Shown here in pieces: positions 1-6,957 of a DNA stretch of 39,823 nucleotides (positions are counted from its first letter, which is position 1; each line of letters opens with the position of its first letter). The stretch lies in contig JAPWVK010000178.1 of assembly GCA_029241965.1 (NCBI GenBank), positions 1 to 39,823 on the forward strand, in the 5' to 3' direction. The notes under the pieces are model-generated. The model had not been told where the DNA came from. It saw only the letters and a list, made by a program, of their open reading frames with translations, and made no database searches. The position numbers were made by a program, and so were the translations under genes. Source of the DNA: Candidatus Methanophagales archaeon (GTDB lineage: Archaea > Halobacteriota > Syntropharchaeia > Alkanophagales > Methanospirareceae).

Positions 1-62
1 AAATAGCTACACTGTTACGGAAACAGCCTAAGGGCTCACGTCGTGTTCTACATGACCAGATA

Positions 63-426
63 GTGACACGGGACAGCACGTTTAAGATGAATGTCGTACT
101 GATCTGGGGAAAGGGATACGAAGAAGCGATGGTTCTGGCGACGACACTCTGGGAGTCGGACCAGTTCATAGTACCGGTGAAGCAGGGTAATGCCTGTAGA
201 GGGAAGGGACTGGCAGGAGCGCGATGGACCGGCAGGGACACACCCTCCATACTCAGAGATGGGCAAGGGCTGTCAACAAAACTGTGGTTCATAATTCTAC
301 GAGAACGTAGAGGATGTACTCCTGAAGAGCCGGATGAGGGAAAACTTCAAGTCCGGTTCTGTGAGGGGGCTCATAGCAACCTTGGGGCTATTACCTCAAA
401 AAGGTGTGCTATGGGCTCTACTCGAC
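63..426 (+). mobile_element. ORF-less group II intron (inner, nested copy; 5' end uncertain)
   Basis: The segment ends in a clear group II intron domain V at 327-359 and a domain VI-like region finishing in CTACTCGAC at about 426. The second intron copy downstream ends with the same nine bases. There is no protein-coding insert between the upstream structured region and domain V, so this looks like an ORF-less intron. Immediately after 426 the reading frame resumes as the C-terminal part of a group II reverse transcriptase (RRLAKFGLTISEEKSRII), so the intron appears to sit inside the RT ORF of a related intron. Homing of ORF-less introns into related intron ORFs is an established pattern in Methanosarcina. 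The 5' end at 63 is a guess based on a GTGAC start; the upstream RT half is not visible. Confidence 0.55.
327..359 (+). ncRNA. Group II intron domain V (inner copy)
   Basis: GAGCCGGA pairs with TCCGGTTC (one G-U pair), and an upper stem GAGG/CTTC is capped by a GAAAA loop. The AGC catalytic triad sits near the 5' base. This is the usual 34-nt layout of domain V, followed by GTGAGGGGGCTC as in the second copy at 943. Confidence 0.8.
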
Positions 427-1032
427 AGAAGGTTGGCTAAGTTCGGGCTGACGATTTCGGAAGAGAAGAGCAGAATCATCGCGTTTGGGCGGAATGCCTG
501 CCAACAATCACGGAAGCAGGACAAGAAGTGTGCTACGTTTGACTTTCTTGGCTTTACACACTTCTGCGATAAGGCCAGAAACGGGTATTTCAAGGTAGGG
601 CACGAGACGTCCAGTAAGAAGTTCAGGCAGAAGATGAAAGAGATGACCCAGTGGCTAAAAGGTATCAGAAATCGCGTGAAACGGGAGGTCTGGTGGCGAA
701 TACTGGGACAAAAACTGGTTGGACATTACCAGTACTATGGTATGAGCGGTAACATGCGGGGAATAAGGAACTTCCATTATCACACGGTGCGACTCGCCTT
801 CAAGTGGATAAACAGGCGCAGCCAGAAGAAGAGTTATAACTGGCTACAGTTTAACCGCTTTCTTTCATTTAATCCGCTACCAAAGCCGAAGATTTATCAT
901 TTTACTTATACCCTATTCAATCGTAGAGGATGTGTTCCTGAAGAGCCGGATGAGGGAAAACCTCAAGTCCGGTTCTGTGAGGGGGCTCTTAGCAACCTCG
1001 AAGCTAATACTCCATCAGGTGGTGGATTATAA
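427..1032 (+). pseudogene. Group II intron reverse transcriptase/maturase, C-terminal remnant
   Basis: The ORF listed as 334-1032 is only meaningful from about 427. It begins with the RT thumb-side segment RRLAKFGLTISEEKSRIIAF, followed by the FDFLGFTH block and a GIIM-type maturase domain (KFRQKMKEMTQWLKGIRN, WWRILGQKLVGHYQYYG). These are typical of LtrA-like group II intron proteins. The palm with the catalytic YADD box is missing because the inner intron interrupts the gene. The ORF has no stop before domain V and runs into it (RGCVPEEPDEGK is translated ribozyme). It cannot make a full RT as it stands unless the inner intron splices out and the 5' part exists upstream. Confidence 0.75.
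943..975 (+). ncRNA. Group II intron domain V (outer copy)
   Basis: Nearly identical to the 327-359 copy: GAGCCGGA/TCCGGTTC lower stem, GAGG/CCTC upper stem and a GAAAA loop. The C at the fourth upper-stem position makes a perfect pair where the inner copy has a G-U. Both copies share the preceding CGTAGAGGATGT and the following CTGTGAGGGGGCTC. Confidence 0.8.
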
Positions 1033-1168
1033 GTTCTACTCGACAAGAAGATATGTACGATGGGCAAAGCGGATGCTCTGCAATTCATTGCGGGTGTGGC
1101 ACGATTGGGGCTTAATGAGAAATATTGAATACGAATAAGAAAACAAAACTGAAATAAGGTGACAAGAT

Positions 1169-5196: not shown

Positions 5197-6957
5197 ATGA
5201 GGCTGAAAGGAACCTGGGAACTCGCAGCGATAGCCGCACTAACCATCTTTTTCCTGCTTTTTGCGGTCTTTAACCTGGGTGCCGTTACGATGCCTTCTTC
5301 CTGCTGGCAGCCGTCAAAAGCAGCTTTGGGCGAAGAGGATATCCCTGTGGTTTTTGACTTAGGACATGTTCAGCAAGTAAAAGCGGTTTATATATTCTTG
5401 CGTGATGCGAAGCGGACTAAGTTCGAGCTATATGGCTGTGCTGTGGATGATGTGGGGCCGCGTTCAGAAGATTGGCGGATGCTCGCCTCTTATGATAAAG
5501 ACCCCGCAAATAGTGTGCACTTTTCCAATTGGGATAAAAAGGATTTTGGTAATAACAGCGTACGGTTTCTCAAGTTCATATTCGATGCCGCGGAGTCGGA
5601 CGGTAAGATAGGGGAGATTCTGGTAATATCTGCGGGGAATAAAAAGGTTGATGTTGTTGATGTACAGGCGGAAGGTGAGTTCGAAGACCCGGTGCAGTTA
5701 GTAGATGAGCAACAGTTCGTGGAACTTCCAATCACACAGAAGTATGGCGCTTACTTTGATGAGATGTACTTTATGCGAACTGCGGAAGAGCATTTGAATC
5801 GTGAGGAGCCATACGAATGGACGCATCCACCACTCGGAAAGCTCATAATCGCATCGGGCATTCTAAAGTTTGGTATGAACCCATTTGGCTGGCGCATTCT
5901 TGGCGCATTAGCCGCAGCATTGATGATTCCTATAATATTCCTTCTGAGTAAGCGCATGTTTAAAAGTGCATTAATGGGCTTCTTCGCGGCTTTCCTTTTG
6001 ACATTCGATTTCATGCACTTCGCTCTGGCGCGGTTGGCAACTGGCGAGATATACATCGCTTTTTTTTCTCTTTTGATGTTTTATTTTGCCTTCGATTATT
6101 TCTCCAACCGGGAGGGCAGTGAAAAAGGAAAGAACACCTCTCTTTTCCTGAGCTTTGTCTTCTTCGGGTGTTGCTTCGCGGTGAAATGGATTGCAATCTT
6201 TGGTTTTGTAGCAATTTTGATTCTATTAGTGATTAGCGATCTAAAAGTCAGGAAGCCAATTCTTAGCGATTGGAAGACCGTCTTAGCAGGGCTACTCGTT
6301 GCCGCGGCTATTTACATCGCGACTTATATTCCATCCATGTTCGCAGGCGAGGGACATGGTCTCGTGGATGTCATCAAGTTGCAGTTCTATATGTTTGGAT
6401 ACCATGCAGGAATTGACGCGACGCATCCTTTCTCTTCTCCCTGGTGGAGCTGGCCCTTGATGTTTAACCCTTTTGACCCAGGGGTTCATGTACCACTTTG
6501 GATGTACTCCAACACATTTGACGGCACAGTTTCGACAGTCGTTTTGATGGGTAATCCTATTATATGGTGGTGCGGTATTCCCGCTTTGATTTTCATAGCG
6601 GCACGGATCGTATCGGATAAAGTAAGACATATAGGTAGGGATAATAACGTTGAACTATTCATCCTCATTCCGTTCCTGTTGCAATGGATCCCGTTTTTGT
6701 TCATCTCGAGAATCCTATTCATCTATCATTTTATGCCCAACGTGCCGTTCATGATACTTGCACTCACTTATTGGATAAATGAGCTGCATATGAGACCGAC
6801 AACGCGGAAAAGTGTCGCCATCTTTGTTATAATGTACTTGATTGTGTTAGTATCCGCCGCAGTTCTTTTCTTCCTGTTTTACCCTGTTATATCGGGTTAC
6901 CCGGTAACGTATGAATATAAAGAGAGTTTAAAGTGGTTAAGTGGCTGGTCTTTTTGA
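5197..6957 (+). CDS. PMT-family protein O-mannosyltransferase with N-terminal discoidin-like insert
   Basis: A GT39-like (dolichyl-phosphate-mannose:protein O-mannosyltransferase) membrane enzyme of 586 residues. Helix 1 covers about residues 8-28. The first extracytoplasmic loop carries the acidic pair in YFDEMYFMRTAEEHL (about 187-200) and the EWTHPPLGKL motif, both hallmarks of the family. About ten further hydrophobic segments follow. Between helix 1 and the DE motif lies an unusual insert of about 140 residues (about 36-175), with W-P start, FDLGHVQQVKAVYIFL and VRFLKFIF, resembling an F5/8-type (discoidin) beta-sandwich that could bind glycans or acceptor proteins (inference). No MIR domain is present. 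It probably glycosylates Ser/Thr-rich exported proteins on the outer face of the membrane; the next gene encodes a candidate substrate. Confidence 0.88.
   Translation: MRLKGTWELAAIAALTIFFLLFAVFNLGAVTMPSSCWQPSKAALGEEDIPVVFDLGHVQQVKAVYIFLRDAKRTKFELYGCAVDDVGPRSEDWRMLASYDKDPANSVHFSNWDKKDFGNNSVRFLKFIFDAAESDGKIGEILVISAGNKKVDVVDVQAEGEFEDPVQLVDEQQFVELPITQKYGAYFDEMYFMRTAEEHLNREEPYEWTHPPLGKLIIASGILKFGMNPFGWRILGALAAALMIPIIFLLSKRMFKSALMGFFAAFLLTFDFMHFALARLATGEIYIAFFSLLMFYFAFDYFSNREGSEKGKNTSLFLSFVFFGCCFAVKWIAIFGFVAILILLVISDLKVRKPILSDWKTVLAGLLVAAAIYIATYIPSMFAGEGHGLVDVIKLQFYMFGYHAGIDATHPFSSPWWSWPLMFNPFDPGVHVPLWMYSNTFDGTVSTVVLMGNPIIWWCGIPALIFIAARIVSDKVRHIGRDNNVELFILIPFLLQWIPFLFISRILFIYHFMPNVPFMILALTYWINELHMRPTTRKSVAIFVIMYLIVLVSAAVLFFLFYPVISGYPVTYEYKESLKWLSGWSF

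What the first reader, a model, noticed from the sequence alone, without database searches (positions are those of the whole stretch)
1..1044. Nested group II introns: ORF-less intron inside the RT ORF of a second intron
Two near-identical domain V hairpins lie 616 nt apart. The region after the first resumes exactly in the RT thumb sequence, while the region after the second leaves the element. Both 3' ends share CTACTCGAC. Homing of ORF-less introns into related intron ORFs is established in Methanosarcina, but an ordered series in one place can date the invasions and tell whether the outer RT depended on splicing of the inner copy.
Basis: partly seen in the sequence, partly recalled or inferred. 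Interest (0 to 1): 0.5.

Follow-up and report, generated by a model that had tools for sequence, protein, structure and literature searches.

The report
Broken nested group II introns
At the left edge of this archaeal contig, a small self-splicing intron had jumped into the reverse-transcriptase gene of a related intron, and both were later cut off on their left side by a fusion to a transposase gene; it is a dead example of a nesting habit already known in archaea.

Summary
Two group II domain V-VI units lie at 325-426 and 941-1044. The second follows the 3' part of a group II reverse transcriptase (RT) gene.

The nested insertion is real. The first unit ends precisely at 426, at a codon boundary of the RT gene, between motifs RT-5 (YADD) and RT-6, not in the thumb. 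At least 14 related RT genes run uninterrupted through that point. The inner copy matches complete 671-nt ORF-less introns elsewhere in the genome (98% to contig C107).

The structure is not a working twintron. The inner intron starts only at about 140 and lacks its 5' end and most of domain I. Left of it, and in contig C185 (joined by an exact 141-nt overlap), is a truncated IS4-family transposase, fused at a 10-nt microhomology. No RT N-terminal half is present. The outer domain VI also carries more mispairs than any relative.

Most likely history: outer intron inserted, an ORF-less intron homed into its RT gene, then a microhomology-mediated deletion from a nearby transposase removed both 5' halves. 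Neither intron can splice here. Nested homing of this kind is documented in Methanosarcina acetivorans. This is a new, decayed member of a known kind.

The parts
1..149 (+). 3' end of a truncated IS4-family transposase gene (rest in contig C185:27426-28242); crossover with the intron lies within the shared GACGACACTC at 140-149
   Evidence: Exact 141-nt overlap with the end of C185; NF033591 E 4e-29; intact homologs read through this point as GGCGAC(T/A/G)ACACTCGCGAAACC
140..426 (+). 3' 287 nt of an ORF-less group II intron (end of the 5' domains, ORF-less domain IV joint at 303/304, domains V-VI); the first ~380 nt including the 5' splice site and EBS1 are missing
   Evidence: 98% identity to complete ORF-less intron C107 (L072), 86% to C86
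325..426 (+). domain V-VI of inner intron; 3' splice end CTACTCGAC|
   Evidence: RF00029 52.4 bits; all consensus pairs kept
427..940 (+). 3' part of the outer intron's RT/maturase ORF (RT-6, RT-7, thumb/X) and the short stretch before domain V; open frame, interrupted in phase 0 between ...AL(R/K) and (K/R)RLAKFGL
   Evidence: TIGR04416 E 4.6e-14; uninterrupted in at least 14 homologs
941..1044 (+). domain V-VI of the outer intron; 3' end at 1044; four mispairs in domain VI
   Evidence: RF00029 54.4 bits
1071..1941 (+). 3' flank of the outer intron, orthologous (92%) to an intron-free locus in a congener, G004:C241 2285-3154

Best explanation
Window 1-1044 is the decayed 3' remnant of a twintron. 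An RT-encoding group II intron (outer) sat in an intergenic site. A related ORF-less group II intron (inner) then inserted by reverse splicing/retrohoming into its RT gene, between motifs 5 and 6, probably mobilised in trans by a related RT such as the intact one spanning contigs C155-C97. Later a microhomology-mediated (GACGACACTC) deletion or rearrangement fused a neighbouring IS4-type transposase gene to the inner intron. This removed the inner intron's 5' ~380 nt and the RT's N-terminal half. Shown: both domain V-VI units, the precise 3' junction in the RT, the empty site in relatives, the ORF-less source copies and the transposase/intron fusion in the contig. Inferred: the order of events, mobilisation in trans, and deletion as the cause of the fusion.
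For: Two RF00029 hits. Inner matches complete 671-nt ORF-less copies (C107 98%; C86, C159; G001:C29 96%) with the same ORF-less joint. RT homologs are continuous across the insertion point in at least 14 loci. Relatives share the exact 3' boundary CTACTCGAC and the 5' boundary GTGYGCC or GAGTGCC. EBS1/IBS1 pairing across 27 relatives scores 0.78 against a shuffled maximum of 0.68; by my reading of that table the C107-type EBS1 (CCTTTT) pairs 4 of 6 with the RT site, as well as with C107's own site. The transposase reads into the intron at a 10-nt shared word. No hit in the relatives searched, other than the window itself, spans the fusion. The outer domain VI has 4 mispairs and the inner none. 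An intact RT frame spans C155+C97, which overlap by 141 nt.
Against: The contig starts at window 1, so everything to the left rests on one assembly overlap with C185. No read depth is available to exclude a chimeric junction at 140-149. The outer 5' half and the original 5' exons were not located. The outer RT fragment still shows protein-level constraint on its own branch (25 synonymous, 18 nonsynonymous changes), so the disruption is recent or the inner copy spliced for a time.
Confidence: 0.8

Rival explanations
1. The transposase/intron junction is an assembly or library chimera; in the cell an intact ORF-less intron lies inside an intact RT ORF (a complete twintron).
For: Contig ends exactly at a branching node 141 nt long. 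Fusion point is a 10-nt microhomology and is not seen in relatives. RT fragment is free of stops and constrained.
Against: The junction is 140 nt inside the contig and a 10-nt repeat is too short to confuse a 141-mer assembly. The missing 5' halves are not linked to it among the contig ends examined. Outer domain VI is degenerate.
Confidence: 0.13
2. The 5'-truncated inner intron is an incomplete retrohoming event: only the 3' end was reverse spliced, cDNA synthesis stopped early, and the cDNA end joined the transposase DNA by microhomology.
For: Precise 3' end with truncated 5' end and microhomology at the 5' joint.
Against: The 5' joint should then lead back into the RT 5' half; it leads to a transposase contiguous with unrelated chromosome in C185.
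Confidence: 0.06
3. A single intron spans both domain V copies (partial 3' duplication), with no nesting.
For: The two domain V-VI units are 91% alike over 89 nt.
Against: Inner unit is closer to the C107-type ORF-less introns, outer to RT-bearing C97/L061; the RT gene is interrupted precisely at an intron end.
Confidence: 0.01

Closest known systems
Nested group II introns of Methanosarcina acetivorans (ORF-less introns homing into related intron sequences; reviewed in PMC4424553)
   Same: Archaeal introns, intron inserted in a related group II intron, site-specific homing balanced by loss through recombination
   Different: There up to five nested introns; here one insertion in an RT palm region, both truncated by fusion to a transposase, in a Syntrophoarchaeum-like genome
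Thermosynechococcus elongatus twintrons (PMC2882425)
   Same: ORF-less intron inserted in the ORF of another group II intron; inner copies younger than outer
   Different: Bacterial; insertion between the first two ATGs so the RT can still be made; intact and mobile
IS4-family transposase (NF033591)
   Same: The first ~270 codons in C185 match the family
   Different: C-terminal part lost by fusion to the intron; an intact homolog is 390 aa

Membership tests
Group II intron (inner copy) | Domain V-VI structure with RF00029 above gathering score | tested here: met
   52.4 bits against cut-off 40; all consensus pairs kept
Group II intron (inner copy) | 5' GUGYG end and domain I with EBS1 | tested here: not met
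   Missing in this copy (starts at ~140), present in complete relatives as GTGYGCC or GAGTGCC. The copy is a remnant, not a complete intron
Group II intron (outer copy) | RT/maturase ORF upstream of domain V | tested here: inconclusive
   Only the RT-6 to X part is present (TIGR04416 profile 230-352); N-terminal half absent from the linked contig C185
Twintron (intron within intron) | Precise intron end inside the sequence of another intron, with uninterrupted homologs | tested here: met
   3' junction at 426/427; at least 14 continuous homologs. 5' junction not available
Twintron (intron within intron) | Inner intron must splice for the outer to function | not testable with these tools
   Needs RNA; both copies lack their 5' splice sites here
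ORF-less mobile intron lineage | Multiple copies sharing the same ORF-less domain IV joint | tested here: met
   C107, C86, G001:C29

The most novel reading that the evidence does not exclude
The genus represented here carries an unusually large group II intron load for archaea (about 30 domain V units in a 2.66-Mb genome), with repeated nesting of different intron families into RT genes (window site and YADD-site insertions in C227 and C42) and into domain VI. It would be a natural series for following homing into introns and its removal by microhomology deletions.
Probability: 0.5. Interest if true: 0.4.

Novelty: new member of a known kind. Interest (0 to 1): 0.22.

Why it matters
It extends intron-into-intron homing, described in Methanosarcina, to Syntrophoarchaeum-like archaea, and gives one inferred order: outer first, ORF-less inner second, transposase fusion last. 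It shows how such nests decay.

Tried and rejected
Looked for the RT N-terminal half and the inner 5' half joined to this locus: contig C185 carries a transposase instead, and the other 5' halves examined (C155, C231) do not link to C178. Tested a duplication within one intron: rejected by the RT homologs. Looked for the outer intron's 5' flank through the intron-free congener locus: the upstream ATPase gene of G004:C241 gave no gene-length match in this genome, only repeats. Synteny of C185 in congeners gave only the transposase, one nitroreductase-like match and a ~160-nt interspersed repeat. EBS2/IBS2 could not be identified clearly above shuffled controls.

Full report
OBSERVATION. Rfam's group II model matches 325-426 and 941-1044 above its cut-off. 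The two units are 91% identical over 89 nt and share the end CTACTCGACA. Across about 50 related copies the sequences diverge after CTACTCGAC, so the intron ends are 426 and 1044.

WHAT FOLLOWS THE FIRST UNIT. From 427 the sequence is the 3' part of a group II RT/maturase (TIGR04416, E 4.6e-14, profile positions 230-352). It begins with RLAKFGLTISEEKSR, between the YADD motif and RT-7, so the site is in the RT palm between RT-5 and RT-6, not in the thumb. The interruption is at a codon boundary: homologs read GCA CTG AGG | AAA AGG TTG GCT and the window reads ...CTCGAC | AGA AGG TTG GCT. At least 14 homologs, in this genome (C97), Syntrophoarchaeum, Methanoperedens and other relatives, are continuous across the point. 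The insertion is therefore derived.

WHAT THE FIRST UNIT IS. Window 140-426 is 98% identical to the 3' part of a complete 671-nt intron in contig C107 and 86% to C86; both lack an RT ORF. In RT-bearing relatives the ORF lies between the positions equivalent to 303 and 304. The first unit thus belongs to an ORF-less lineage with several copies, including one in a congener (G001:C29, 96%). Across 27 relatives the EBS1/IBS1 pairing covaries (0.78 of positions paired; best of 30 shuffles 0.68). By my reading of that table, C107's EBS1 (CCTTTT) pairs 4 of 6 with the RT site, as good as with C107's own exon.

WHAT LIES TO THE LEFT. The window begins at a contig start. Its first 141 bases are identical to the last 141 of contig C185, as expected of neighbours in a k=141 assembly graph (the assembler is my inference). 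C185 ends in a transposase (IS4 family, NF033591, E 4e-29, below that model's curated cut-off because the protein is truncated). Intact relatives of that gene read GGCGAC(T/A/G)ACACTC|GCGAAACC, introns read CACAGACGACACTC|TGGGAGTC, and the window reads GGCGACGACACTC|TGGGAG. The fusion lies in the shared word GACGACACTC (140-149). The inner intron therefore lacks its 5' splice site and most of domain I, and no RT N-terminal half is present. No hit in the relatives searched spans the fusion.

STATE OF THE REMNANTS. The inner domain V-VI keeps every consensus pair. The outer one has four mispairs, all in domain VI, more than any of the 17 others (0-2). The outer RT fragment has no stops, and on its own branch shows 25 synonymous and 18 nonsynonymous changes (9 and 4 on the L061 branch), so most of its history was under constraint and the disruption is recent. 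The genome also holds an intact RT frame across C155-C97 (141-nt overlap) that could have mobilised the ORF-less intron in trans (inference).

HISTORY. Outer intron insertion (its 3' flank is intron-free in the congener G004), inner insertion into the RT gene, then fusion to the transposase, most simply by a microhomology deletion. The last step depends on one assembly junction that I could not check against reads.

COMPARISON. A review states that M. acetivorans holds up to five nested introns formed by repeated site-specific homing, balanced by deletions through recombination (PMC4424553). T. elongatus twintrons likewise hold ORF-less introns in intron ORFs (PMC2882425). The present case is the same kind, in another archaeal lineage and already broken. 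No paper in the library combined the terms for group II introns, archaea and Syntrophoarchaeum.

OTHER NESTS. In this genome a different intron sits at the YADD codons of RT genes in C227 and C42. In relatives, introns are inserted inside domain VI of others (L122, L150). The genome has about 30 domain V units, against a maximum of 10 per archaeal genome in a survey of near-complete genomes (PMC8919778).

Noticed in passing
G000, 30 places listed: About 30 group II domain V units in a 2.66-Mb archaeal genome, in several families; a survey of near-complete archaeal genomes reports at most 10 (PMC8919778). Many contigs start or end inside them.
   Followed up: partly
C227 (L071) 6599-6674 minus; C42 (L079) 5270-5345 minus: A different intron type ends at the YADD codons of two distinct RT genes, suggesting a homing site at the RT active-site sequence. 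Both contigs begin inside the inner intron.
   Followed up: partly
L122 (G025:C108) around rc 2742-2765; L150 (G029:C112) around rc 2469: An intron apparently inserted inside domain VI of another intron: two consecutive CTCTACTCGAC ends.
   Followed up: no
L069 5380-5540 (C185): A ~160-nt interspersed repeat with dozens of copies in most members of the genus; several contigs end in it.
   Followed up: no
window 1067-1094 and 1639-1665: Similar short sequences (GGATGCTC...GAATTCATTGC), hairpin-like in the congener, flank the small lipoprotein-like gene next to the outer intron.
   Followed up: no
L062 5442-5580: A second related intron begins 10 nt after the end of the first (tandem introns) in a Methanosarcinales MAG.
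   Followed up: no
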